In this document: piece after piece, positions 4,102 through 64,000 of the stretch
How positions within the stretch are numbered: the stretch's first letter is position 1
How the letters are laid out: every line of letters begins with the position of its first letter
Translations under genes and position numbers: made by a program
DNA from: a virus
Direction: 5' to 3' (one strand)
Length of the DNA stretch: 64,000 nt
IMG/VR virus record: IMGVR_UViG_3300042878_002532
Span: 49,294-113,293 of that record
The notes under the pieces: model-generated
What the model was told of the DNA's origin: nothing
Database searches by the model: none
Seen by the model: only the letters and a program-made list of their open reading frames with translations

Positions 4102-4150
4102 AAACATGTAACATCATGATATACTAATAACTAATATTTGGTTTTTCTAT

Positions 4151-4174
4151 TTGGATATATAAATCAAAATAAAA
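4151..4174 (+). promoter_or_regulatory. 24-nt leader element shared with the spanin-like pair
   Basis: A 24-nt element with core GATATATAAAT, ending 8 nt before the endolysin ATG. A copy with 21 of 24 matches and the same 8-nt spacing lies at 43225..43248. Probably a promoter or translation element of lysis genes. Confidence 0.6.
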
Positions 4175-4182
4175 ATATCAGT

Positions 4183-4998
4183 ATGTTACTAAAAGTAGGA
4201 TCAAAAGGAGATGACGTAAAGTCACTTCAGGAAAAGCTGGGACTTACAGCTGACGGCTCGTTCGGACCTGGAACAGAGAAAGCCGTAAAAGAATGGCAAG
4301 CAAAAAACGGATTGACGGCAGACGGAGTTATCGGTGATAAAAGCTGGCAACTTTTGGCTTTATTCGGAACAAAAAAAGAAGAGGTTGTAATACCTGCAAG
4401 TGAATTTAAGCTTGAGGCATTAAAAGGACATCTTCCGGATTCAGTAATCGCTCAGATTCCTGACACAGCAAAAAAATTCAACATTACAAATGTATTGAGA
4501 CTATCTCACTTCTTGGCACAATGTGGTCATGAGTCTGGTGGATTCAAAGCGGTTTCTGAAAACCTAAACTATTCTTCTGACGGATTGAAAAAAATATTCG
4601 GAAAGTATTTCCCTGGTGATACTACGGCTTATGCTAGAAACCCGGAAAAGATTGCTTCTAAAGTTTATGCAAACAGAATGGGTAATGGAGACGAAAGTTC
4701 TAAAGAAGGATTCAAATTCAGAGGTAGAGGATATATCCAGTTGACCGGAAAATCAAACTATCAAGGATTCACAAAATTCATTGGAGAGGATTGCGTAGCA
4801 AATCCGGATTTAGTAGCGACTAAATATCCATTGGCTTCTGCGGCATTCTTTTTTGACTCTAATAAACTATGGTCTATTTGTGATAAAGGTGCAGATGATG
4901 CTACCGTAACTGCAGTTACTAAAAGAGTGAATGGTGGTACTATTGGATTACCGGATAGAATAAAACATTTCAAAGAGTTTTACAACTTACTTAAATAA
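4183..4998 (+). CDS. Endolysin: peptidoglycan-binding domain plus GH19 chitinase/lysozyme domain
   Basis: 271-aa lysin predicted to cut the glycan strands of the host wall. Residues 1-65 form a PG_binding_1 domain (GSKGDDVKSLQEKLGL, then DGSFGPGTEKAVKEWQ and DGVIGDKSW). Residues about 85-270 are a GH19 glycosidase: HFLAQCGHESGGF holds the catalytic Glu, RGRGYIQLTGKSNY is the substrate-cleft signature, and KRVNGGTIGLPDR closes the domain. There is no signal peptide, so release would need a holin or membrane rupture. The ATG at 4183 is chosen because it opens the binding domain at once and lies 8 nt after the shared leader. A bidirectional terminator follows. Confidence 0.92.
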   Translation: MLLKVGSKGDDVKSLQEKLGLTADGSFGPGTEKAVKEWQAKNGLTADGVIGDKSWQLLALFGTKKEEVVIPASEFKLEALKGHLPDSVIAQIPDTAKKFNITNVLRLSHFLAQCGHESGGFKAVSENLNYSSDGLKKIFGKYFPGDTTAYARNPEKIASKVYANRMGNGDESSKEGFKFRGRGYIQLTGKSNYQGFTKFIGEDCVANPDLVATKYPLASAAFFFDSNKLWSICDKGADDATVTAVTKRVNGGTIGLPDRIKHFKEFYNLLK

Positions 4999-23410: not shown

Positions 23411-24394
23411 ATGGCCAAAATAGATAAAGTGGAAAAATTCTTAAAAGAAGAAAAACCAAAGAAAATAAAAAATCTTGAAGTAGGTTTTGACATAGATTCT
23501 TTTGAAAAAGAAGAAGATACGGATACTCTTGGATTTAGATCAGAGTTTGAACCAATCGCTAAAGGTAAAGAAAAAACTCTTAAAAAAGAAATACAAGTTA
23601 CTACACCAGGATTAAAAAAATCTATCAAAAAGTTTGAGGATTTCAAGATTTCTATTTCTATTGATGAAGTAGAACCAGAAGAAGGTGTTCTTATGGGTGG
23701 TTTAACACCTAATGATGATGAAACTTGTTCAGATTGTGAATCTAATCCATGTGGGTGTGGATGTTCTGATTGTGATTGTGATCCTTGCGAATGTGGTGTT
23801 GGTGAAGAAGATGTTGCAAAGTTTTCTAACTTTAATGATGTCATTGGAGACTTATTTTCAGAGAGTTTAAAGTATCATTTGAAAAATAATAAACCAATCA
23901 CTGAAAACATATTTAGACCAGGTTCTGAGGCTTTCTATGATGTTCTTAAAGAAGCTAGAACACATTTTGATTCTAATAGAGTAAATCTAACGGGATTGGA
24001 TAAAGATTTGTTTGAGTCTACTGAAATAGGAAAGTTTGCTAAGTTCAATGGTGAGATAGTTCCTTTGGATCTTCCAATGGAAACGATTGAAGAAATGAAT
24101 GAGGCCGAATACAAAGGTAGAGAAGTTGAGTTGAATCATCCAATGAGAGGTGGTACTAAGAAGTATCATGTTTATGTTAAGAATCCTAAAACAGGTAATG
24201 TTAAAAAGATTGCGTTTGGTGATGTTCACGGTGGATTGACCGCAAAGGTTAGTGATCCTAAGGCTAGAAAGTCTTTTGCTGCTAGGCACAAATGTGATAT
24301 GAAGAAAGATAAGACTAAGGCCGGATATTGGGCTTGTAGAATAAACAAATACGGACATCTTTGGGGTGGAAAAACTTATCCTGGATACTGGTAA
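23411..24394 (+). CDS. Cys-cluster virion-type protein
   Basis: 327-aa protein with several parts. The start MAKIDKVEKFLKEEK is a weak capsid-targeting-like peptide with L-K-E. Residues about 105-128 are a striking Cys cluster (CSDC, NPCGCGCSDC, CDPCECG), likely metal-binding. Residues about 150-205 share the PGSE/TG[IL]D segment with the protein at 3391..4101. The end (GREVELNHPMRGGTKKYHVY, then KSFAARHKCD and YWACRI) is a basic domain seen at the C-terminus of many phage proteins of unknown function, with two Cys. I infer a head-associated or DNA-contacting virion protein. It is followed 3 bp later by the cupin-like gene. Confidence 0.75.
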   Translation: MAKIDKVEKFLKEEKPKKIKNLEVGFDIDSFEKEEDTDTLGFRSEFEPIAKGKEKTLKKEIQVTTPGLKKSIKKFEDFKISISIDEVEPEEGVLMGGLTPNDDETCSDCESNPCGCGCSDCDCDPCECGVGEEDVAKFSNFNDVIGDLFSESLKYHLKNNKPITENIFRPGSEAFYDVLKEARTHFDSNRVNLTGLDKDLFESTEIGKFAKFNGEIVPLDLPMETIEEMNEAEYKGREVELNHPMRGGTKKYHVYVKNPKTGNVKKIAFGDVHGGLTAKVSDPKARKSFAARHKCDMKKDKTKAGYWACRINKYGHLWGGKTYPGYW

Positions 24395-28475: not shown

Positions 28476-31400
28476 TTATGCGAATCCACCTGCTGCAATA
28501 GCTCCTGTTCTTAGTATAGTTACATTGTTAACAATGATTCCCATACCTTTGATAGGTTCTACGTAAGTATCAAGTACACCGATTTGGTTATCGATAATCT
28601 CAGTCGTATTGTTTTCCTCATCCATTTTATTGAAGTAGTTGTACAATCCATTTTTACTTACATATGTTTCACAGATTACGTCAGCTCTAAGTTTGATTTC
28701 AGCTCTGATGTCTGGTGTGTTATATCTCCATTGGAAGTCTAACAACATTCTTGATAACTCTCTTTCAAGCTCGATAAGTACCTCTCTAACGTGAATGTAA
28801 GAAAGTGCCGATTTGTAAAGAGTTTGTGCTGTATTCTCAGTCTCAATAACGTTTCCTCTATTTCTTTTGAAAACGATTGGGTTGATTTGAGCACCATTTA
28901 ACCACTCTATGTCAGATGGAGTAAAGTCCATTTCTAATCCAGCGATGTTTGTGATTCTACCGTTAGTAACACCCGCTGCGATTGTCCAAGGAGTAATAGA
29001 TCCAACATTTGATGTATGTTTTCTCATATACGTTGTTGCTGCATGAGATGCTGGTGGCATATCTAATGGTCTTCCATTGTCATTTACTGTTAAGTAAGGC
29101 ATGAAGTAACCAACACAAGTTGTACCTGCTCCGTCACCGAATGAGTAAAGGAATGCTGGTCCACTTTCAGGATCTCCACCTTTGGCAATAAACTCTGCTT
29201 GAAGAACTCCTTCTGCGTTTACGAATGTTGGAGAGCTTGAGTTTTTGAATGACTTCATAGAAGGCATATTCAAGAATCCAAATGCGTCTAATCTATCTCC
29301 ACAGATGTCAACTAATTGTTGTTTAGATCTTTCTGTCAATCCTAATCCAAATGAATCGATTAAGTATCTGAAGTCTAAAGCTTCTTTGTTAGTTATTGCT
29401 TTGAACAATGGTGTTCCTTTTGAAACAAGATTTAATACTGCATTTTGTCTAGCTTCAGTTCCATCAGGTAATGATGCTTCTCTTACTCTGAATCCTTTTA
29501 AAGAGATTGCTTTGTAAGTTGTTGCATAGTTATCAACAGTTTTGTATCTTGTTGTTTGCCAGTCTCCACTAAAATTAACCTTTTTGATTTCAGAATCACA
29601 AGTTATTTCAACTAAGTCTGCGTTTCCAGTGTATTGTCTTTTTGAAACAATTCTTGTTAGTTTTCTTGGATATTGACCAATGTTTAGTGTTAGTTCATTA
29701 TACTTAGCCTCTAAGAAGTCTCCAACTTTTACTTCAGTATATCTAGCTCCCGCTACAAGAACTTTGTTAGGAACTTCAACATATCCAGCAGGATACTCAA
29801 TCTCTAAAGATTGTTTGTAGTTTGTTATTGCAGAGTTTATTTCGAATGTTCCTGCTGTTTCGATATCTACATCCTCATATGAATTAAATGTTTCATCCAT
29901 AAAAGATACATTTAAAACTTCTCCATCAACATACATTTTAAGGTAGTGTTTAGTGTTGAAGTCTGATATTATAGAAACGTTTTGTACTCTTTCGTAAGAA
30001 GTTTCTTCGTTTACTTTATATACGTGTGTGAATATTCCAGCACCATTATCCATAGTACCAAAAAGATTATCTGATATGATTGTGAAAGTTCCTGTGTTTG
30101 TAACCGCACCTTTTATAGAAATCACGTCGTATAAAGAAAGCTCGTCTAAATCTGCTGCGTTAAATGCGATATAATCGTATCCTGCTGCAGAAGAAGTAGG
30201 TCCTACGTTTACTCCAGCAGTTAATCCAAATACAGTAACTGCAGATTCACCATCAAAGAAGTAAACATCAGATATGTATTCAGCACCCGCTACATAAGGA
30301 GTTGCATTTGCTTTTTCTAATATTGTTTTAGATGTTTTGTTTGCATAGAAGAAATCTCCAGTGTTTACAACACCATCATAGTATCTTCCGTATAGTTTAG
30401 AGTATTTTCCAACTACACCAAAACTATTTCCATCAGCAACTTCTACTTGTGTTTTTACACCTTTGGCACCTAATATAAATTCGTTATCTACTGTATAGAA
30501 TACTAAGAAACCTTTTAAGATGTCTTGTAAATCTGCTAGTTCGAAAGGAAGTTTAAGTTCGAAAGATTTATCTTGTGTAGAAGAAGTAACAATATTTGAT
30601 ATTGAAACGTCTGCTAAACTAATCTTATCTCCTTTGTAGTTGTTAAGACCTTTTTTAAAGCTTTTAAGCATTGCCATTTTAACTTTGTTAGGACTATCGA
30701 TTAGATCAACAAGTCTGTTAAACATTTTGAATCTTCTGTATTGTGCGTAGTCTTTAACGTTTATAGAAGAGTCTGTATCTGTAAAGGTTACTTTAATAGA
30801 TCCTGTTGCTCCAGTTACTGCTTCTATGAAGTAGTCTGCACCTGATGCCGTACCAAATACGAAGTTGTTAAATCCACCTTGTTTAAGGTTTACGTTTGTC
30901 CAAACTGGAGTTCCTGTTATTTGTTGTTCTAATACTCTGAACTTAACAGATGCTAATACAGTATCTGTAGATGCTACTGAAGGATTGTTTGCGTTTGTAC
31001 TATTTACAACTTTAAATTTTCCTGTAGAGTCTACTACGAATGCAGATGAATATGTTGCTGCAGTTGAACTGTATACGTAGTTACTTCCTAATATACTAAG
31101 TGTTGCAGTTCCTGAAATAGGTACTTGTTTGTCTCCAACAACAACAAATGCGTCATAGTCTGGATACATAAGTGAGTAAGTAGCTACGATTGATGCAGTT
31201 GAATAACTAAATGTTGCAGCAAGTTCTACGTTATAGATATATCCTTCTGAGAAGTATGATGTTCTTTCATCACCATTAGTAACCCATCCTTTTACTTTAG
31301 GAGTTTCATATGCGTGGTGTGTTCCAGTCTCATATGCCCAAGATGCTGAACCACCTAATAAAGCAGTTACGTTTCCTGGTAAATCTAATGGATTTGAAAC

Positions 31401-32408
31401 GATTTCAATCTCTTCTGATATTACTTCTTGGTAAGAAAGGAAATCAATATTAGTTTCATTTTTACCTGCGATTGTATGGCCGATTAAGTCAAGTCTTCCG
31501 TTGAAGAAGTCTGTTTCTACTAAGTCACTATTAAACGCACAAAATATACCAGTTCTGTCTGTATCTCTATTTACTACTGTTTCGATGAAGACGTTTCTAC
31601 CGTTTGCATCTCTAAAATATGGAATTAAAGAAAGTCCTTCGTAGAATGCTAAAAGCGTAATGTTTCTATCATTTGCGAATTCTCTAACTTTGTCTTTTCT
31701 AAGTCCTGTAGCATTGAAGTAAGCACTCCATCTAGAATCTACTGCTAAAGTTTTGTAGTCTGACCAATCACCACCAACTACAACAACATCAACCATATAG
31801 TCAGATGCGTAATCATTAGTGCTAACATAAGGAGGCATTTTTTCTGCCGAACCATACCATTCGATAAGAGTTCTGTCAAATCCAGCTACTGCTGATTTGA
31901 AAACAAATACAGTTACGAATTTATCAGATAAGTTTGTTAAACTGAATGCTCTTTCAGAGTATCCTGTGTTATTTTTAGTAAGATTTATGAAAGACTCAGT
32001 GTCTCTTTTCCAGAAACCTGTAGTGTCAAAAAATCTTCTATAAGGACCAGTTCTTTCCACGTCGTTTAAAGTATCTGCAGAAGTAGATAGAGACTTATAT
32101 TCAATAACGTCTAAATTATCGTCTGTAAGAAGCAAGTTTATTGCATAAACTGGGGCTGTCTCCAACATTTTAGAAACTGTTCTATGAAAGAACGAACCCT
32201 TTCTCTCCAATCCTCTATCCAATTGACCGAATATTGCTTCTAAGTCAGTTGTGTTACTAACCATTATCGGTGTATTGACAGGTCCTTTTTTAGACACGCC
32301 TATTACCAAGTTTGTAAGTCCTTCAACAACTGGAGTCGCGATAACGGAGTTATCATATTCCTCTAGGAATATTCCTGGTCTTTTGTATTTTCCAATTTGA
32401 ATTGCCAT
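28476..32408 (-). CDS. 18: Contractile tail sheath protein (T4 gp18-like), unusually large
   Basis: 1310-aa sheath subunit; it contracts to drive the tube into the host. The N-terminus (KYKRPGIFLEEYDNSVIATP, then GVSKKGPVNTPIMVSN) is the classic sheath start. The C-terminal 300 residues hold the conserved polymerising domain: KAITNKEALDFRYLIDSFG, then PPASHAATTYMRKHTSN and LNGAQINPIVFKRNRG, ending with helices and the strand GMGIIVNNVTILRTG. T4 gp18 has 659 residues, so about 650 extra residues, mostly Thr/Val/Gly/Asp-rich beta-type sequence at roughly 350-950, are inserted between the ends. These probably form outer decoration domains. Transcribed from a late box 29 nt upstream. Confidence 0.9.
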   Translation of the reverse strand: MAIQIGKYKRPGIFLEEYDNSVIATPVVEGLTNLVIGVSKKGPVNTPIMVSNTTDLEAIFGQLDRGLERKGSFFHRTVSKMLETAPVYAINLLLTDDNLDVIEYKSLSTSADTLNDVERTGPYRRFFDTTGFWKRDTESFINLTKNNTGYSERAFSLTNLSDKFVTVFVFKSAVAGFDRTLIEWYGSAEKMPPYVSTNDYASDYMVDVVVVGGDWSDYKTLAVDSRWSAYFNATGLRKDKVREFANDRNITLLAFYEGLSLIPYFRDANGRNVFIETVVNRDTDRTGIFCAFNSDLVETDFFNGRLDLIGHTIAGKNETNIDFLSYQEVISEEIEIVSNPLDLPGNVTALLGGSASWAYETGTHHAYETPKVKGWVTNGDERTSYFSEGYIYNVELAATFSYSTASIVATYSLMYPDYDAFVVVGDKQVPISGTATLSILGSNYVYSSTAATYSSAFVVDSTGKFKVVNSTNANNPSVASTDTVLASVKFRVLEQQITGTPVWTNVNLKQGGFNNFVFGTASGADYFIEAVTGATGSIKVTFTDTDSSINVKDYAQYRRFKMFNRLVDLIDSPNKVKMAMLKSFKKGLNNYKGDKISLADVSISNIVTSSTQDKSFELKLPFELADLQDILKGFLVFYTVDNEFILGAKGVKTQVEVADGNSFGVVGKYSKLYGRYYDGVVNTGDFFYANKTSKTILEKANATPYVAGAEYISDVYFFDGESAVTVFGLTAGVNVGPTSSAAGYDYIAFNAADLDELSLYDVISIKGAVTNTGTFTIISDNLFGTMDNGAGIFTHVYKVNEETSYERVQNVSIISDFNTKHYLKMYVDGEVLNVSFMDETFNSYEDVDIETAGTFEINSAITNYKQSLEIEYPAGYVEVPNKVLVAGARYTEVKVGDFLEAKYNELTLNIGQYPRKLTRIVSKRQYTGNADLVEITCDSEIKKVNFSGDWQTTRYKTVDNYATTYKAISLKGFRVREASLPDGTEARQNAVLNLVSKGTPLFKAITNKEALDFRYLIDSFGLGLTERSKQQLVDICGDRLDAFGFLNMPSMKSFKNSSSPTFVNAEGVLQAEFIAKGGDPESGPAFLYSFGDGAGTTCVGYFMPYLTVNDNGRPLDMPPASHAATTYMRKHTSNVGSITPWTIAAGVTNGRITNIAGLEMDFTPSDIEWLNGAQINPIVFKRNRGNVIETENTAQTLYKSALSYIHVREVLIELERELSRMLLDFQWRYNTPDIRAEIKLRADVICETYVSKNGLYNYFNKMDEENNTTEIIDNQIGVLDTYVEPIKGMGIIVNNVTILRTGAIAAGGFA

Positions 32409-32477: not shown

Positions 32478-33020
32478 TTAAAAGGAGGTTATTTTTTTAG
32501 AAGAATCTTGCATTTCTTTTTTTATTTCCTCCATTTTCTTTTTTTGTTCTGCGGTTGCAGTCAATAGGGCTTTTTTTAAATCGACAATCTCCTGAGTCTT
32601 TATCTTTTGATTAGATTTTATGTCGTTTACGGTCTTTAATTTGGCGGAAGTGTCTACTTTCTGACTTGATAGTTGCTTTAAATCTTCTTCGTTTTTATAA
32701 AGATCATCATTGTACTTCATCAACTCATCTTGAACATACTTTATTTTCATTTGAAGGTTCATCATTCGTGTGTACTCTTCTATGAATGGATTATTCAAAA
32801 ACTTTTTATTTATTTCCTCTATCTTTTTATTTAATAACTCATTGTCTTTGTCACTTTTTAGATTCATGAAAGCTTTATCAAGTTCTGCCTTTACTGCAGG
32901 AAAATCTTTTAAACTTTTTTCAAGGTTATTAGTTTCTTCTTTGGCAAGTTTTACGTCAGGCTCATCAGTTATTTCGACTTCCACGTTTTCAAAACGTTTA
33001 AAATTCTTTAGATATTTCAT
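32478..33020 (-). CDS. Tagged coiled-coil protein
   Basis: 180-aa Lys/Glu-rich protein, almost all helical, beginning MKYLKNFKRFENVEV, a strong capsid-targeting-like peptide. Heptad-like patterns run from about residue 60 to the end (VQDELMKYNDDLYKNEEDLK, QKKKMEEIKKEMQDSSKK), so it is probably an elongated coiled coil. Not recognised. It lies 17 bp downstream of the 1141-aa tagged protein gene and shares its promoter. Predicted to be head-internal, perhaps part of the core, by analogy with T4 internal and core proteins. Confidence 0.75.
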   Translation of the reverse strand: MKYLKNFKRFENVEVEITDEPDVKLAKEETNNLEKSLKDFPAVKAELDKAFMNLKSDKDNELLNKKIEEINKKFLNNPFIEEYTRMMNLQMKIKYVQDELMKYNDDLYKNEEDLKQLSSQKVDTSAKLKTVNDIKSNQKIKTQEIVDLKKALLTATAEQKKKMEEIKKEMQDSSKKITSF

Positions 33021-33037: not shown

Positions 33038-36000
33038 TTAAGCTCTGGTGATTTCAACTTTGCTCGCGTCACTTCCGTTAATCATATTTACGATCGTGGA
33101 AATTCCCGCCACTTTGGCTATCTGCTTGTTTAGTTTTTCGACCTTCTCTTTGTCTTTACCTATTTCTTTTCCAAATTCTATCGCGTTGAAAAGAACGTTT
33201 TTGCCATCCACCTCTTTTGTGATCCAATATGCTCCGATCACTTCTATTTTTTCGGTGGTGATTTTTTTCTGACCGTCCGCACTCATCATTCCGACTTCTA
33301 TAGTACCTGGTGATAATAACAATTTCAAGAAATCATCTCTTTTAACTTTGGTGAAATGTGAAAGTGCTTTAGATTCTTTTACCTGTAAATCACCACCTAC
33401 TAAATTATTAGCATGTCCTAAAACAGAGGCGTCTAGAAGAGGATTGAATGTGCCAAAGTTTTTACTACACTGCATATATGCATATGCACCATCTATCTCT
33501 TGAATGTAGAATGCTCTCTGTGCCTCGTTGCCATCTTTGTCTTTTATCTTCAATACAAAAAACGTGTATTTTACAGGATAAACGGCTTTTTTACCATCGT
33601 CACTAACCGCGTTTTCACTTTTTGTGGCCTTTATCTTAGTAGCGCTTGCTTCTATCCCTTCTACAATCTCTTGGTTATTTTCTTCATCTTTTTCCAAAAA
33701 TGTTCCTCCTTTGTTGATTGCAGTACCTATCTTCTCGTCCGGTTTTCCAAAGTATTCGTCTAAAAGCTCTGCTTGTTTTCCTCTTCCTGAATCACCATAT
33801 CCACTTTTAGATTTGTAAAGACTATCACCATCTAACATATCGGTCATGAACTTTCTCAGATTGGCACCACCGTTTGGTCTGATTTCGTTTCCTACTCTTA
33901 GGTTTGTCTTCGGGTCGAAGATGAATTCGTATTTTCTATCTTTCATTAAATCCAAAACTGCATTTTCCCAAACATCGAATATTTTGTCGTTTCTATAAGG
34001 ACCTTTGTCTCCAAACGAAGTATATTCTGCTTCGGTACTTACACCAGGTCCGGTACTTCTTTTTGTTATGTATTTTGCCATATAAAGCTTGTATGCTCTG
34101 TTGAACAATTTCAATATCTCGATTATTGGATCGTATCCGTCTATTATGAATCCGTCTTTGTCTTTTTCTAACTTTTCGAAGTTTGCTCTAACTTTCTCAA
34201 ACTCTGTTTTATCCATTGTGTAGTCTTTTACATTTCTACACTTTCTCTCAAAGTAGTCTTGTATCCTTTCGACTCTAGACATACTAGATCTTGGATCACT
34301 TGCACTTGTACTTCCTTGAGTTTCTGTTGACTCTGGAGTCTCTTCTGTAGTCACTGGTTCTTCTGCTTCTTTTATGTAAGACATGAATCTGTCGAATTTA
34401 AGCAATCTTCCTACAGGTTTACTACTGCTCTTCAATGCTTCGTTTAATTCCAACATAATAACACGCATTCCAGCTTGTATCTCCATTAATTTTGAGATAT
34501 AAACACTTTCGTTTACCGATTCGTCAAGCTTGTCCAGGTCGGCTTTCATTTTATCTATGTTTGCTAGTATCTTCGCTTTTTTTGGGTTATCTTTTTTAAG
34601 TTCCAATGCTTTTTTAGTCGCACTTTCTATATCTTTTATAAGCTCGTCCTTTTTATATTTGGTCTCTCTTGCCTTTTGGTCTACATAAGGTGAAAGATCT
34701 GATTTTGAAACTCCAAAAGAAATTTTCGAATCGTCGTACACAACAGATAGTGTATCTTCCTTTGGAAGTTTTCCACCTTCTGCGTCGTCTTTAGTTGCCC
34801 ACTTTTTATCATCGCCCATTTTCATTACATGAGTCTTCGAAACCAAAGTCACAACTCTCTTATCGCCTTTTCCGTCTGTGTATATGTATTTTTGACCAAC
34901 GTTGTATTTGCTTTCCTTTTTCTTTTCCTCGCTTTGCTCTGAATACTCTGTCTTAACATTGACAATTGGATTTTTCATCAAAACCTTTAATGTCTCAACA
35001 AACTTTTTAAGCGGATCTGCCAATTCTCCTAAACCACCATAAAGATTCTTCCCATCAAACTGTAAAGCTCTCTTTGCGAATCTTGCGATTTTTTCCGCAA
35101 CAACTTCAATCTTACCACCATTTGGATTTTTCTCACTTCTTGGCATTAGATATTCGTAAGACTCTTTATATAAAGAATCTTTTTCTTGAATCGTTTGCTT
35201 TTTGTCACCTACCAAATACCTATTTATATTGTCGTATAAGGCCATTATGAGTGTATCGTTTTTACCATCTTTATGTTTGGCTAATAGTATTCTGACAAAC
35301 TCTTCACTTATTGGTAGCTTTTGGTCTTTTGTATCTATAAGAGATGTTATATCTTTTGTTAATTTTCCAAATGCTTGAGTCAAATGATCTTCTTCTTTAT
35401 AGACATTATTTCCATCTACACTATTTCCTTGTTTCTCTAATACTAATTCAAGTCCTGCTTTTAAAGTTATCTTTTCCTTTTTAGTGTTAAGTTTCGTAGC
35501 AGCAGCGAGTGTTGCTTTCAATTCTAGTTCGTTTTTGGCAAAAATTTTATCAATATTTGCACTTGAAAAAGTAACTCCTTTGTTTATATCGGAGTTGTTC
35601 AGTATCGATGTTAATGTGTCACCTGCTACAGTTACATAAGGAACTGGTTTCTTTGCATCTGCCTCTTCTTTTTTGTTGAAGTTTAAAAGATTTACACTTT
35701 TGTAATTTTTTAAGATATAGTAAAGTGCACTTAGATTCTTAATCATGGTTGGAAGGCTTTCTTCTAACTTTGAATATTTATCCTCATTCTCTTCAGAATC
35801 TTCTTCACTTTGACCCTGTCCTTGACCCTGTCCTTGACCTTGTGCTTGACCCTGTCCTTGACCTTGTGCTTGACCTTGTGCTTGACCTTGTGCTTGACCC
35901 TGTGCTTGACCCTGTGCTTCTATTTTTTTTAGTTCCTCTAAGAAACCCTCAAGTTCTTCAAGTAATTTAGCCTTTACTGTAGTATCAATATCGGTTTCTT

Positions 36001-36463
36001 TCATCTCTTCTGTTGCTGTGATTGCACTTTCTGTAAGATTTATTATAATATTAGTCTCAGAACCATTTTCAACGGCCTCGTTCAATGCAAAAAAGAATGA
36101 ATACAAAATACTTTTTGCATAAAGTTTCTTATCTTCAGGATTCATGTTGTATGCAAATCCAGATGCTGCTATCCTATCAAATTCACCTTCTAGTCTTGAG
36201 ATTAATGGCTTTATTCTTCTAAGGTTGTTAGCGACTTTTGCTTTTCTAACAAGGTGATTTAAAAACCTACCTACTAATGAATCATGCCATCCAATATCAT
36301 TCGCCATTGGTCCTGATCCGTGGTTGCTGGCATATTCACTTTCTTTTATAAGTTCTTGATATAGTTCATTTCCTGATATTTTTGCGTCTCTTAGAAATTC
36401 AGATTTTTCGTCTAATCTTTTGGCTTCTCTTAAAAAGTCATTTCTTTTAATAAGATATTTCAT
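33038..36463 (-). CDS. Large tagged protein with Gln/Gly repeat and internal second tag
   Basis: 1141-aa protein, not recognised. It begins MKYLIKRNDFLREAKR (F-L-R-E could be a protease site). Residues about 20-130 are helical. Residues about 178-218 are a Gly-Gln-Ala-Gln low-complexity run shared in style with the protein at 44210. Residues about 220-680 are Lys-rich and mixed. At about 684-702 a second tag-like peptide appears, LLKFDRFMSYIKEAEEP, followed by a Thr/Glu/Ser linker and a second half of about 440 residues with its own alpha/beta pattern. It may be a fusion of two head-internal proteins or a polyprotein cut by the prohead protease. Late-type promoter. Confidence 0.75.
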   Translation of the reverse strand: MKYLIKRNDFLREAKRLDEKSEFLRDAKISGNELYQELIKESEYASNHGSGPMANDIGWHDSLVGRFLNHLVRKAKVANNLRRIKPLISRLEGEFDRIAASGFAYNMNPEDKKLYAKSILYSFFFALNEAVENGSETNIIINLTESAITATEEMKETDIDTTVKAKLLEELEGFLEELKKIEAQGQAQGQAQGQAQGQAQGQGQGQAQGQGQGQGQGQSEEDSEENEDKYSKLEESLPTMIKNLSALYYILKNYKSVNLLNFNKKEEADAKKPVPYVTVAGDTLTSILNNSDINKGVTFSSANIDKIFAKNELELKATLAAATKLNTKKEKITLKAGLELVLEKQGNSVDGNNVYKEEDHLTQAFGKLTKDITSLIDTKDQKLPISEEFVRILLAKHKDGKNDTLIMALYDNINRYLVGDKKQTIQEKDSLYKESYEYLMPRSEKNPNGGKIEVVAEKIARFAKRALQFDGKNLYGGLGELADPLKKFVETLKVLMKNPIVNVKTEYSEQSEEKKKESKYNVGQKYIYTDGKGDKRVVTLVSKTHVMKMGDDKKWATKDDAEGGKLPKEDTLSVVYDDSKISFGVSKSDLSPYVDQKARETKYKKDELIKDIESATKKALELKKDNPKKAKILANIDKMKADLDKLDESVNESVYISKLMEIQAGMRVIMLELNEALKSSSKPVGRLLKFDRFMSYIKEAEEPVTTEETPESTETQGSTSASDPRSSMSRVERIQDYFERKCRNVKDYTMDKTEFEKVRANFEKLEKDKDGFIIDGYDPIIEILKLFNRAYKLYMAKYITKRSTGPGVSTEAEYTSFGDKGPYRNDKIFDVWENAVLDLMKDRKYEFIFDPKTNLRVGNEIRPNGGANLRKFMTDMLDGDSLYKSKSGYGDSGRGKQAELLDEYFGKPDEKIGTAINKGGTFLEKDEENNQEIVEGIEASATKIKATKSENAVSDDGKKAVYPVKYTFFVLKIKDKDGNEAQRAFYIQEIDGAYAYMQCSKNFGTFNPLLDASVLGHANNLVGGDLQVKESKALSHFTKVKRDDFLKLLLSPGTIEVGMMSADGQKKITTEKIEVIGAYWITKEVDGKNVLFNAIEFGKEIGKDKEKVEKLNKQIAKVAGISTIVNMINGSDASKVEITRA
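35810..35930 (-). repeat. Gln/Gly/Ala codon repeat in the 1141-aa gene
   Basis: Tandem copies of a 12-nt unit related to GGTCAAGGACAG (minus strand), encoding GQGQ/AQGQ runs. Related to the longer tract at 44486..44875. Confidence 0.8.
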
Positions 36464-38176: not shown

Positions 38177-38416
38177 ATGGAAAAATTAATGAACGTTTGT
38201 AAGAGTCCTTGGTGTAAGGCACATTTCGAATATTTTGAAAATGAGATTACAATTGTTGATGGTAATGGAGTAGTACCCAAAACATGTCCAAAATGTAGAA
38301 GCTTTGATACAGAGCTTAGTGGTGGTGTCACCTGGACCGACAAAGAATATGAAGGTAGTAGATTTGACGGAAAACCACATGAGATAAAATACAAAATAAC
38401 GAATTTTAAACTATGA
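38177..38416 (+). CDS. Small zinc-ribbon-like protein
   Basis: 79-aa protein. CKSPWCKAHF at residues 8-17 and CPKCRSF near 37-43 give two Cys pairs about 25 residues apart, a likely zinc ribbon. The remainder is short and polar with no other motif. The stop overlaps the next ATG by 4 nt, so the two genes are probably translated together. Predicted leaderless transcript from the abutting box. Possibly a nucleic-acid or protein-binding partner of the HAD-like protein that follows. Confidence 0.7.
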   Translation: MEKLMNVCKSPWCKAHFEYFENEITIVDGNGVVPKTCPKCRSFDTELSGGVTWTDKEYEGSRFDGKPHEIKYKITNFKL

Positions 38417-39258
38417 GAGCACACTTCTTCGATATAGAAACCATTTTAGTCATGGATAGTAAAGTCTGGATAGTAGATAAATCAAATCCAAAAGTACCTA
38501 TTATGAAAATATCTAGATCAGATTTTAATCTGATAAAGAGTGGAATATACAAAAGTCAAAATAATTCTATTTATTTTGGTGGTGCCACCTATTGGGTTCC
38601 TGAAAAACTGATGAACACTCTAAAGATTAAATGTAAGAATCTAAAAATAGATATTACAAAACTTATATTTTCTATGCAGGAATACATGAATCCTGAGATA
38701 ATAGAAACACTTGACTATGATATAAACATAGAAAACTTACAACATCTTAAAAACACGACTGATGACATATACTTTATTTGCTCAAAGAACACTAAAAACA
38801 ACTATGAGAAGATAATAAAGAAAATAGAGGAAAAGCTTGAGAAGATAGGATTGACTGTTAAAAAATACTATTTCATATCTGATACTTTTTACAATAGAGA
38901 CTTAGATGAAGTTTCTCATAAAAAAGTAAGACTTCTTCTTCAACATCTTATTGGTATGAAAACAGAAGGTGATAAGTTTATAGAAGAAGAACTTCAAAAA
39001 TATGATGAGATTGAATTCTATGAAGATGATGAAAAGACTATTAGTCTTGCAATAGATTGTAATAAACTACTTCAACTTCTTATAGATAATAGTGAGTCTA
39101 GTATAAAGTCTAATCTAAAAAATCTTCTTAAATCAGAAACTCTACTTTATGTAAACTTTGTGAGTCCTAATAAGGTTAAAAGATTTTCTAAAACAAAAGT
39201 CGTGGTTGAATATCACAATCTTATAAAGACTTTTGAAAGATTTAACTTCAAAAAGTAG
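38413..39258 (+). CDS. Degenerate HAD-like protein
   Basis: 281-aa protein. FFDIETILVMDSKVWIV at the start resembles HAD motif I but has Glu where the second catalytic Asp of DxD is expected. IYFICSKNTKNNY looks like motif II, and IEFYEDDEKTISLAI resembles the acidic motif IV. The order and spacing fit a HAD fold with altered or lost phosphatase chemistry. The C-terminal 60 residues are basic and helical. Overlaps the zinc-ribbon gene by 4 nt. May be a nucleic-acid end-processing relative; activity uncertain. Confidence 0.65.
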   Translation: MRAHFFDIETILVMDSKVWIVDKSNPKVPIMKISRSDFNLIKSGIYKSQNNSIYFGGATYWVPEKLMNTLKIKCKNLKIDITKLIFSMQEYMNPEIIETLDYDINIENLQHLKNTTDDIYFICSKNTKNNYEKIIKKIEEKLEKIGLTVKKYYFISDTFYNRDLDEVSHKKVRLLLQHLIGMKTEGDKFIEEELQKYDEIEFYEDDEKTISLAIDCNKLLQLLIDNSESSIKSNLKNLLKSETLLYVNFVSPNKVKRFSKTKVVVEYHNLIKTFERFNFKK

Positions 39259-60878: not shown

Positions 60879-62981
60879 ATGAAACCAGTTCTAATTGTAG
60901 AAAATTCAACGAACTCTCTTATAAGAGAAAGTTCAAGCACTGGTAAGAAGGACTATATTTTGGGTGGTACATTCACTGAATTCGGCGTTAAAAACCGTAA
61001 TGAGAGAATCTACACTGCTGCAAAATTCCTTCCTGCTTTAGAGGAGATGAATGAAAGAATGAACAATCTTGGAATTGTCTACGGTGAATTTGATCATCCA
61101 GACGTTTTCGATACTTCACTTTCAAGAGCTTCTCACGTAATTACGAAAGCTAATTACGTAAAAGAATCAAACTTGGTAGAAGGTGAAATCAGATTATTAA
61201 GCACTTATTGGGGAAAAGAGGCAAAATCGTTAGTAGACGATGGTTGTCCTATTTTCGTTTCATCTAGGGCTGCAGGTATTACTGAATCTGATGGCACTGT
61301 ATCATTAAAAAAACTATTTACTTACGACATCGTTGCTGACCCAGGTTTTGCATCGGCTAAAATGAGTGTAAAGGTTCTTAATGAGTCACTTGGTTATGAC
61401 AACCCAAAATCTAACTTTAGGATATATGATTTATCCAACGAGTCAAAAACGGAAGAGTTATTTAATATGAACAACAACGAATTTGTTACTAAACAACAAC
61501 TAACTGACTACTCTCAGTATTTGGTTAAAGAGTTGGCATCAACTAAAAAAGAAGTTAAGACTGCCATTACTAAAGGGAATATGAACCCTAAAAAACTTGA
61601 GCAATTGCTTGAGTATTACGATGAATTGAACAACACTAATTCACAAGTAGCTAAATATTTAGATTACTTAGCTGAGAAAGTTCAAATTATGGTAAATGAA
61701 AACAAGTCTTTGAAAGAAACTACAGAGAAATTAATCAAACATAACGATTATTTAGCTGAAAATCTTGAAAAGGCTGTAAACTATTCTGAATACTTAGCAG
61801 AAAACTTAGATAAGAACATTGCTTATTCTGAATATGTTGCTGAAAACTTAGACAAAAACATTGCTTATTCTGAGTATGTTGCTGAAAACGTAGACAAAAA
61901 CATTTCTTACACAGAATATGTTGCTGAAAACTTAGACAAAAACATTGCTTACTCTGAATACTTAGCAGAAAACTTAGACAAAAACATTGCTTACTCTGAA
62001 TACATTGCTGAGAGCTTAGACAAATCTATTGCTTATGGTGAGTATATCGCAGAACACGTTGATAACTCTATTGCTTACTCTGAATACTTAGCAGAACACG
62101 TTGAAGGTAACATCGCTTACTCTGAATACATTGCTGAACATTTAGATGATAATATTGCTTACTCTGAATACATTGCTGAAAATTTAGACAAATCTATTAA
62201 CTACCAAGGATTAATCGTTGAGAAGTTAAACGGTGGTAAATTGAACGAATCAGAAGGAGCATTCCCATCATTAAATGCTGCAGGATTTGAAGATCTTGAA
62301 GATGAAAACGATGATGAAAATGAAAATGCATATGGATCTGAAGAAGAAGACGAAGATGAAAACGGAATCGCAGAAATGACTCCTAATCATGCATACGCAC
62401 ACGAAGATAATGAAGATGAGAATGAAGATGAGGATTGTGGCCCAGGTGTTACAGGAAACTCAGATTCAGAATTATCAGAATCTATTGATAAATTAATCGA
62501 AGAAGCTAAAAAACGTAAAGTTTCTGAGACATCAGATTTGAATTTCTTGAAATTCATGTCTAAATCACAAGTTGATAGCTACTATGCTTTAACTAACGAA
62601 GAACAAGAGACAGTAAAACTACACATAAACGAAAGTAGCTACTTCACACAAAAAGAAGTATTGTCTTTAATCTCTGAAGCGTTATCAACTAAAAACGAAT
62701 CTCTTGAAGAAAGAGTAATCAGAATGATGCCTGAGAACACAAAGGCTATCTGGAATCAGTTAAATGAGTCTGCAAAAAAATCTATCATTTCACAAGCTAG
62801 ATTATATCCTGCAGAAGTATTAATGACTGAAGGTCAAGTTGAACATTTTTGGGCAACAAGAAACCTAAAAAAGAATGAATCTGTATCTAAAAAACTTGTT
62901 TCTCACGAAGCTCTTATCCAAGAAGATAAGTTGTCTGATAATGACGTAACAGCTATTATGGAAAGATTCAAAAACATTTAA
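60879..62981 (+). CDS. 21: Prohead protease fused to scaffold/core protein (gp21-gp22-like)
   Basis: 700-aa single open frame combining two T4 functions. Residues about 20-170 are a gp21-type serine protease: His73 in YGEFDHPDVF, Ser128 or Ser129 in IFVSSRAAG, and FTYDIVADPGFASAKM. Residues about 200-690 look like a scaffold core (gp22 role): helical, with eleven 14-aa repeats at 288-441, an acidic linker (EEEDEDENG) and a C-terminal region ending DVTAIMERFKNI. In T4 gp21 (212 aa) and gp22 (269 aa) are separate. A likely self-cleavage site is L-I-R-E at residue 17. The protease would cut scaffold, capsid protein and tagged proteins during head maturation. Confidence 0.85.
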   Translation: MKPVLIVENSTNSLIRESSSTGKKDYILGGTFTEFGVKNRNERIYTAAKFLPALEEMNERMNNLGIVYGEFDHPDVFDTSLSRASHVITKANYVKESNLVEGEIRLLSTYWGKEAKSLVDDGCPIFVSSRAAGITESDGTVSLKKLFTYDIVADPGFASAKMSVKVLNESLGYDNPKSNFRIYDLSNESKTEELFNMNNNEFVTKQQLTDYSQYLVKELASTKKEVKTAITKGNMNPKKLEQLLEYYDELNNTNSQVAKYLDYLAEKVQIMVNENKSLKETTEKLIKHNDYLAENLEKAVNYSEYLAENLDKNIAYSEYVAENLDKNIAYSEYVAENVDKNISYTEYVAENLDKNIAYSEYLAENLDKNIAYSEYIAESLDKSIAYGEYIAEHVDNSIAYSEYLAEHVEGNIAYSEYIAEHLDDNIAYSEYIAENLDKSINYQGLIVEKLNGGKLNESEGAFPSLNAAGFEDLEDENDDENENAYGSEEEDEDENGIAEMTPNHAYAHEDNEDENEDEDCGPGVTGNSDSELSESIDKLIEEAKKRKVSETSDLNFLKFMSKSQVDSYYALTNEEQETVKLHINESSYFTQKEVLSLISEALSTKNESLEERVIRMMPENTKAIWNQLNESAKKSIISQARLYPAEVLMTEGQVEHFWATRNLKKNESVSKKLVSHEALIQEDKLSDNDVTAIMERFKNI
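61740..62201 (+). repeat. Eleven tandem 42-bp repeats (14-aa) in the scaffold region
   Basis: Units of the form YSEY[LVI]AENLDKNIA, 11 in a row without gaps; a further related unit precedes them with a 14-residue insert. 14 residues equals two heptads, so the array should form one long coiled coil. Copies are very similar in DNA, implying recent expansion. Confidence 0.92.
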
Positions 62982-63066: not shown

Positions 63067-64000
63067 ATGTCACACATTAGAATAGACAAAGCGAAAGCTA
63101 CAAAGAAATGGGCTCCTGTTCTTGAGAACATGGGAGTTACTGGTGATAGAGTTGAATGGATGGCGGAATACGCTGAGTTTCACTCAATCAACGAAAACGC
63201 ATACGTAAACGCATCTAACGTTGCTGGTATGGGTGGTGTATTTGCTGCACAACCAGGAAGTTATGCTGGACAAACAAACGGTGGTACTTTAGCTACTGCA
63301 GCTTCAGTTGGAACAATCGGTTCAGGTGATGTTGGTCAAAACTTATTGCCAGTTGCAATGAAAATTGCTGCTCAAACAATCGGTTTAGACTTAGTTGCTG
63401 TTAAACCAACTCCAGGTCCGAAAATCGATTTACTTTACATCGATTTCCAATATGATGATACTAGATTAGGTGCATCTGACGAAAGACCACAAGTTTTCAA
63501 ATTAAATGTTGGTGCATCTGCATCTGTATTTAATGCTGCAATCCAAACAGGTGTTGGTTCAACAATCGCACAAAATCAAGGTGGATTACAAAATGGTAGA
63601 TATTTCTACTCAATCAATGGTGCTGGTACTCAGTCATTAGGTAACCCAACAATCTTGAGCGGAAACGTTGCTGGTGCAACAGTTTCAACTACTGAGCCTT
63701 TACAAAAAACTGGTGTTGTTGAGTTCTTAGGATTCTCTAGAATTGATGGTTTCCCAATGTTCAGAGCGTTTAGACAAGCTAACACTGCACACACTGCAGT
63801 TGATCAAGCTAACCTTGCTTGGACATTAGATCCATCAAGAAACACATTTACTGCTACTGCATCTATGACTTCTAAAATCACTCACCTTGCTGGTCTTACT
63901 ATTGCATCTGGAACTGTGACTATTGAGTTAATCTCTGCATTAGAAGATCATATCCCAGGTTTCTCAACAAACTTTGGTGGTGTTCCTTCTGGATCTGCAC
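63067..64000 (+). CDS. 23: Major capsid protein (T4 gp23-like), partial at window end
   Basis: N-terminal 311 residues of the capsid protein; the rest lies beyond the window. SHIRIDKAKATKKWAPVLEN is the N-terminal prosegment. FHSINE at 38-43 gives an I-N-E site like those cut by T4 gp21, so the mature protein probably starts at Asn44. Then come GDVGQNLLPVAMKIAAQTIG, LVAVKPTPGPKIDLLYIDFQ and FNAAIQTGV, as in gp23-family HK97-fold proteins. Codon choice is highly biased (TTA, AAC, ATC, GGT), in line with the most abundant virion protein. It follows the protease/scaffold gene by 85 bp. Confidence 0.9.
   Translation, partial: MSHIRIDKAKATKKWAPVLENMGVTGDRVEWMAEYAEFHSINENAYVNASNVAGMGGVFAAQPGSYAGQTNGGTLATAASVGTIGSGDVGQNLLPVAMKIAAQTIGLDLVAVKPTPGPKIDLLYIDFQYDDTRLGASDERPQVFKLNVGASASVFNAAIQTGVGSTIAQNQGGLQNGRYFYSINGAGTQSLGNPTILSGNVAGATVSTTEPLQKTGVVEFLGFSRIDGFPMFRAFRQANTAHTAVDQANLAWTLDPSRNTFTATASMTSKITHLAGLTIASGTVTIELISALEDHIPGFSTNFGGVPSGSA

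What the first reader, a model, noticed from the sequence alone, without database searches (positions are those of the whole stretch)
33038..36463. 1141-aa tagged protein contains a second, internal tag and may be a polyprotein
Seen: N-terminal MKYLIKRNDFLREAK and, at about residues 684-702, LLKFDRFMSYIKEAEEP, which looks like a second capsid-targeting peptide with its own I-K-E site, followed by a polar linker and a second domain. Inference: either two ancestral head-internal genes fused, or a polyprotein cut by the prohead protease into separate packaged proteins.
Basis: inference. Interest (0 to 1): 0.75.

Follow-up and report, generated by a model that had tools for sequence, protein, structure and literature searches.

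The report
Megaphage head polyprotein with internal tag
A 1141-residue protein of a giant bacterial virus carries, besides the packaging tag at its start, a second packaging tag and protease site in its middle, kept in 66 of 71 relatives, so it is probably packed into the virus head as one chain and cut there into two proteins.

Summary
The ORF (33038-36463, minus strand) starts with a tag and has a second one, L687-LKFDRFMSYIKE-699, before A700. The internal element has the T4 capsid-targeting pattern (aromatic-xx-F plus I/L-x-E|A; T4 IPIII: MKTYQEFIAE|A).

Searches gave 71 non-redundant full-length relatives, most from queries that excluded the tag. 66 carry an intact tag in the same inter-domain linker (shuffled linkers: mean 2.8, maximum 10), 2 a degenerate one and 3, a single clade, none. 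In a 41-row alignment E699 with I/L/V at P3 occurs in all 37 tagged rows. AlphaFold gives residues 681-725 low confidence, between domains. The phage encodes a T4-type prohead protease, and its capsid protein shows the same kind of site (INE|NA).

"Two ancestral genes fused" is not supported: N and C parts are always one ORF, on both sides of the tree's deepest split. "Polyprotein cut by the prohead protease" is the best reading, but the cut is inferred. No proteomics exist, and the N part could be a removed propeptide. Neither part matches a known family or fold. The gene lies beside the tail-sheath gene in 69 of 71 relatives.

The parts
33038..36463 (-). whole ORF, 1141 aa: head-internal precursor
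   Evidence: 71 non-redundant full-length relatives
36341..36463 (-). residues 1-41: N-terminal tag MKYLIKRNDFLR... ending at LIKE41|S42
   Evidence: an I/L/V-x-E shortly before the N domain in 67 of 71 relatives; residues 40-49 have pLDDT <50
34367..36340 (-). residues 42-699: predicted N product, mostly helical
   Evidence: AlphaFold model; conserved GPMANDIxWxDSLxGR motif
35813..35917 (-). residues 183-217: QGQA/QGQG low-complexity spacer, variable between relatives
   Evidence: pLDDT <50 at 188-231
34688..34891 (-). residues 525-592: small beta-barrel (Tudor/SH3-like) insertion found mainly in close relatives
   Evidence: alignment gap 0.77-0.89; Foldseek prob 1.00 to PHF1/PHF19 Tudor chains but E about 0.5
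34367..34405 (-). residues 687-699 LLKFDRFMSYIKE: internal capsid-targeting-like tag with protease site; predicted cut E699|A700
   Evidence: intact in 66/71 relatives; E699 in 37/37 tagged rows; pLDDT <50 over 681-725
34283..34366 (-). residues 700-727: polar/acidic linker after the cut
33041..34366 (-). residues 700-1141: predicted C product (core 728-910 most conserved; beta-rich 942-1091)
   Evidence: A6/A8 alignments; AlphaFold mean pLDDT 80.9 for residues 726-1141
32478..33020 (-). next gene, 180 aa, N-terminal tag MKYLKNFKRFE
   Evidence: found next to the focus gene by BLAST in 51/71 relatives
28476..32408 (-). tail sheath gene, conserved neighbour
   Evidence: PHROG tail sheath E 4.8e-94; nearby downstream in 69/71
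38413..39258 (+). 281-aa neighbour with the tag motif at its extreme C-terminus (LIKTFERFNFKK)
   Evidence: 62 of 69 relatives
60879..62981 (+). predicted prohead protease fused to a scaffold-like repeat region (the inferred cutter)
   Evidence: PHROG_207 head maturation protease E 1.6e-29 over residues 2-279; 11 YxxYxxE motifs
63067..63999 (+). 5' part of the major capsid protein gene (gp23-like) with N-terminal site YAEFHSINE|NAY
   Evidence: ORF; PF07068 weak here (17 bits), over cut-off in W01 and W02; same site in both

Best explanation
This is a two-part head-internal precursor of a T4-like megaphage. The N-terminal tag, helped by a second internal copy of the same kind of tag, draws the uncut chain into the prohead core. 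The T4-type prohead protease then removes the N-terminal tag at E41|S42 and cuts after the internal tag at E699|A700. This gives an N product of about 658 aa (mostly helical, with the spent internal tag as its C-terminus) and a C product of about 442 aa. One tagged chain thus delivers two domains in a fixed 1:1 ratio and frees them from each other only inside the head. Shown: the two tags, the two motif-matching sites, their conservation, the low-confidence (probably disordered) setting, and a protease and capsid protein of the right kind. Inferred: targeting, cutting, retention of both products, and any function after ejection.
For: Internal tag intact in 66/71 relatives, most found with queries that exclude it. 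E699 with I/L/V at P3 in 37/37 tagged rows; only E41 and E782 are comparable I/L/V-x-E columns, and E782 lies inside the conserved C core. Residue choice matches the T4 CTS: positions 4 and 7 govern targeting and 8 and 10 processing, and gp21 cuts at L/I-x-E (PMC9026906); T4 IPIII read from AF158101 is MKTYQEFIAE|A. P3 is I/L/V in 64 of 67 tags; P1' is A in 48. The spacing between aromatics and site varies while the motif stays. Residues 681-725 and 40-49 have pLDDT <50. Prohead protease and a capsid protein with INE|NA in three genomes. 11-13% of proteins in the two full genomes start with this tag, against 1.1-1.3% of internal Met positions.
Against: No proteomics or protease assay exists, and no isolate of this lineage is known from the papers read. 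Three relatives (one clade, 100/100 support) lack the tag yet keep N and C in one ORF, so a cut is not needed in every phage. In about ten relatives P1' is K, R or N and the acidic linker is missing, which may mean no cut there. There is no depletion of other I/L-x-E sites in either part, so nothing shows that both parts are retained. Relatedness inflates the shuffle test.
Confidence: 0.6

Rival explanations
1. Giant propeptide: the cut happens, but residues 1-699 act as a core or scaffold part that is degraded or expelled, and only the C product stays in the virion.
For: SPN3US removes propeptides up to 254 aa by multiple cuts (PMC10052503), and T4 gp22/gp67 are cut into fragments (PMC9026906). 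The N part is mostly helical and variable in length; I/L-x-E-A/S/G sites are slightly above shuffled there (1.23) and slightly below in the C part (0.89), but the value for large W01 proteins is 1.15.
Against: No further I/L/V-x-E column inside the N part is conserved beyond 59%; the N part has well conserved motifs.
Confidence: 0.17
2. Targeting or docking only: the internal tag is an extra scaffold-binding motif that is not cut, or not completely.
For: In T4 an Asp at CTS position 10 blocks processing but not targeting (PMC9026906). The conserved neighbour (38413-39258) carries the motif at its extreme C-terminus, generally without an I/L-x-E site, so the motif can apparently serve without cutting.
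Against: Here the I/L/V-x-E is the most conserved part of the internal tag, which binding alone would not require.
Confidence: 0.15
3. Recent fusion of two once separate tagged genes explains the second tag.
For: The internal tag resembles N-terminal tags with the start Met replaced by an E-S-containing stretch.
Against: No relative has separate genes (83 complete single ORFs); tag and fusion lie on both sides of the deepest split of a midpoint-rooted tree; no hit in the genome-contig scan. An ancient fusion before the common ancestor cannot be excluded.
Confidence: 0.06
4. Internal translation start, making the C part as a second protein.
For: M694 lies within the tag.
Against: A Met within 12 residues upstream of the site occurs in only 19 of 67 relatives; M694 is the residue in 24% of rows; no obvious ribosome site upstream by eye.
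Confidence: 0.02

Closest known systems
T4 internal proteins IPI/II/III and their capsid targeting sequence
   Same: Tag with aromatic-xx-F and I-x-E|A; packaged by the core and cut by gp21 (MKTYQEFIAE|A)
   Different: In T4 the CTS is N-terminal and about 10 aa long; here a second copy is internal, at residue 687 of a 1141-aa two-part protein with no sequence similarity to IPs detected
T4 gp22, gp67 and Alt processing by gp21
   Same: Internal or C-terminal cuts at L/I-x-E by the prohead protease (PMC9026906)
   Different: gp22 and gp67 are scaffold/core proteins cut into fragments; here one conserved cut would separate two long domains
SPN3US / phiKZ head proteins with long propeptides
   Same: Giant-phage head proteins cut by a prohead protease, sometimes several times (PMC10052503)
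   Different: Different cut motif (S/A-x-E in phiKZ, PMC9026906); no aromatic tag described in the passages read; SPN3US propeptides are 20-254 aa
Polyvalent proteins, e.g. P1 DarA and DdrB
   Same: Large packaged multidomain proteins, proteolytically processed, likened to polyproteins (PMC5512222)
   Different: Those carry known effector domains and often their own peptidase; none found here

Membership tests
T4-type capsid targeting sequence | aromatic-xx-aromatic core followed by I/L-x-E | tested here: met
   66/71 relatives; window K-F-D-R-F...I-K-E|A
T4-type capsid targeting sequence | located at the N-terminus | tested here: not met
   Internal copy at residues 687-699; the N-terminal element of the same protein is at the N-terminus. 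So the internal element is CTS-like, not a classical CTS
T4-type capsid targeting sequence | sufficient to direct a protein into the prohead | not testable with these tools
   needs a fusion experiment
gp21-type prohead protease substrate | L/I-x-E at the cut, exposed | tested here: met
   37/37 tagged rows I/L/V-x-E; pLDDT <50
gp21-type prohead protease substrate | actual cleavage | not testable with these tools
   no virion proteomics
T4-like phage head system | own prohead protease and gp23-like capsid protein | tested here: met
   PHROG_207; PF07068 over cut-off in two relatives, weak in the truncated window copy
T4 internal proteins (IP I-III) | small proteins homologous to IPs | tested here: not met
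   no PHROG or Pfam match over cut-off; 1141 aa
Fusion of two genes | separate genes in some relatives | tested here: not met
   83/83 complete two-part ORFs; the single split gene breaks elsewhere
Polyvalent proteins | recognisable effector or peptidase domains | tested here: not met
   Pfam and PHROGs without match over cut-off

The most novel reading that the evidence does not exclude
In this megaphage lineage one short motif organises head filling. It repeats 11 times in the protease-scaffold fusion (YSEY[LIV]AE|N, mostly every 14 aa), starts about 11-13% of all encoded proteins, ends a conserved neighbour, and divides this protein internally. Cargo tags would mimic the scaffold repeat to co-assemble into the core, and the protease then clips scaffold, tags and this polyprotein at the same motif.
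Probability: 0.35. Interest if true: 0.8.

Novelty: new variant of a known kind. Interest (0 to 1): 0.6.

Why it matters
An internal, conserved packaging tag plus protease site would be a clear sequence case of a tailed-phage head polyprotein: two cargo domains packed in equal numbers from one gene and released inside the head. It gives precise, testable cut positions (E41|S42, E699|A700) in a phage lineage with genomes over 600 kb and no isolate known from the papers read, and a motif from which the internal cargo of these phages can be predicted from sequence.

Tried and rejected
Pfam and PHROGs for the protein and divergent relatives: nothing over cut-off. Foldseek of the full model and of the C part against PDB: no match with E <= 0.001; against viral models one, an unnamed 746-aa protein of an uncultured marine phage (E 1.9e-9). 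Phage records: only LR745206 and LR756502. Genome contigs with the C core: no relative. Paralogues of N, middle or C part in the three genomes: none convincing. Depletion of I/L-x-E sites as a sign of retained products: no signal. The second same-genome match (residues 183-252) overlaps the QGQ low-complexity stretch and was set aside. Recent fusion of two genes and internal start: rejected as above.

Full report
What is there. The ORF at 33038-36463 (minus strand, 1141 aa) is real and has an N-terminal tag (MKYLIKRNDFLR...) and an internal segment L687-LKFDRFMSYIKE-699|AEEP. The window is the end of a 113-kb virus record. The only relatives in the phage records are LR745206.1 (635 kb) and LR756502.1 (642 kb), huge phages that PMC9723777 places as sister group to the marine megaphage Mar_Mega_1. 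The window also encodes a terminase large subunit, portal and tail tube, a tail sheath and a prohead protease and the start of a gp23-like capsid gene, so this is a T4-like tailed phage.

Is the internal tag real? Queries limited to residues 770-910 (A6) or 50-180 (A7), which exclude the tag, brought in most relatives; earlier queries brought the rest. Among 71 non-redundant full-length relatives, 66 have an intact tag at the same place, 2 a degenerate one (L269, L276) and 3 none (L111, L218, L270) (hand-corrected: the regular expression hit a chance site in L269 and L276 and missed a longer spacer in L282). Typical forms: KQESKLLKYDSYLTLIRE|AEGD, TKESVISKYSSFLSYIKE|ADED, KKESRLFRYYDFINE|AEEG, LLKYNSFMRINE|ADEA. 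In shuffled linkers the pattern appears in 2.8 of 71 on average (maximum 10) against 66 observed; the 75 residues on either side give 4 and 8. Shuffling ignores relatedness, so this is a guide and not a probability. In a 41-row alignment information content peaks at F690, F693, I697 and E699 inside a gapped linker, and E699 is a glutamate with I, L or V two before it in all 37 rows that have the segment.

Is it the same thing as the N-terminal tags? A matrix trained on 77 N-terminal tags of other proteins ranks the LR745206 internal segment first among 3209 internal candidate sites, and the window's 18th. T4 IPIII and IPII, read from AF158101, start MKTYQEFIAE|A. In T4, CTS residues 4 and 7 govern targeting and 8 and 10 processing, and gp21 cuts after L/I-x-E (PMC9026906). 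The compact versions here (YYDFINE|A, YLDFIKE|A) have the T4 spacing exactly.

Is the place suitable for a cut? AlphaFold on 39 sequences gives pLDDT below 50 for 681-725 and 40-49, between better-predicted stretches. The C part, folded alone, has mean pLDDT 80.9. Low pLDDT is consistent with disorder but does not prove it. The capsid proteins of all three phages share YAEFH[SQ]INE|NAY, which supports the same specificity for the phage's own protease; that those capsid proteins are cut there is itself inferred from T4 relatives.

One gene or two? All 83 complete ORFs that hold both parts are single genes. One gene is broken (contig 3300012665_001944, L190/L249), but in the middle domain. The internal tag occurs on both sides of the deepest split of a midpoint-rooted tree; the tag-less three form one clade nested beside tagged L114. 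So tag and fusion are old and the tag was probably lost once. This speaks against a recent fusion; an ancient one before the common ancestor cannot be excluded.

Neighbourhood. The order focus gene - 180-aa tagged gene - tail sheath holds widely: sheath in 69/71, tagged gene found by BLAST in 51/71. The 281-aa neighbour keeps the motif at its extreme C-terminus in 62 of 69 relatives. Thus the motif is found at the N-terminus, in the interior and at the C-terminus of neighbouring genes.

Mechanism and limits. The best reading is a head polyprotein: targeted by tags, cut at E41|S42 and E699|A700, giving products of about 658 and 442 aa. My estimates: the internal tag is a selected element, 0.95; it is cut, about 0.75; both products stay in the head, about 0.5 to 0.6. 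Alternatives left open are a giant propeptide (precedent: SPN3US) and targeting without cutting. I found no fold or family for either product, so what they do once inside the head or the host is not known; a head-internal structural or ejected role is an inference from the tags and neighbours.

Novelty. Multiple prohead-protease cuts, N- and C-terminal propeptides and packaged multidomain proteins are known. An internal targeting tag that divides one protein into two domains was not described in the papers I read or found in the searches I made; most subscription papers are not held in that library. I therefore call it a new variant of a known kind.

Noticed in passing
60879-62981, residues 260-435 of the product; also W01:198546 and W02:225272: The predicted protease-scaffold fusion holds 11 YxxY[LIV]xE motifs (mostly YSEY[LIV]AE), ten of them in a strict 14-aa register, each resembling the T4 CTS YQEFIAE; conserved in all three phages. 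Cargo tags may mimic the scaffold repeat.
   Followed up: partly
LR745206.1 and LR756502.1, whole genomes: 108 of 944 and 123 of 970 called proteins (11-13%) start with a CTS-like tag, against 1.1-1.3% of internal Met positions; I/L/V-x-E follows in 63% against about 30% of untagged proteins. Possibly about 100 different packaged proteins per phage.
   Followed up: partly
38413-39258: 281-aa gene between terminase and the focus gene ends in a conserved C-terminal tag (LIKTFERFNFKK; 62 of 69 relatives), generally without a cleavage site.
   Followed up: partly
4138-4998: Peptidoglycan-binding plus GH19-like lysin ends in RIKHFKEFYNLLK, another C-terminal tag-like motif.
   Followed up: no
23411-24394, residues about 70-90 of the product: Another internal tag-like segment, SIKKFEDFKISISIDE|VEPEEG, in a 327-aa protein; possible second polyprotein.
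   Followed up: no
34688-34891: A Tudor/SH3-like small barrel is inserted in the focus protein mainly in close relatives of the window.
   Followed up: no
contig IMGVR_UViG_3300012665_001944 (L190, L249): The only relative with the gene split in two ORFs; the break is in the middle domain, probably a frameshift or sequencing error.
   Followed up: no
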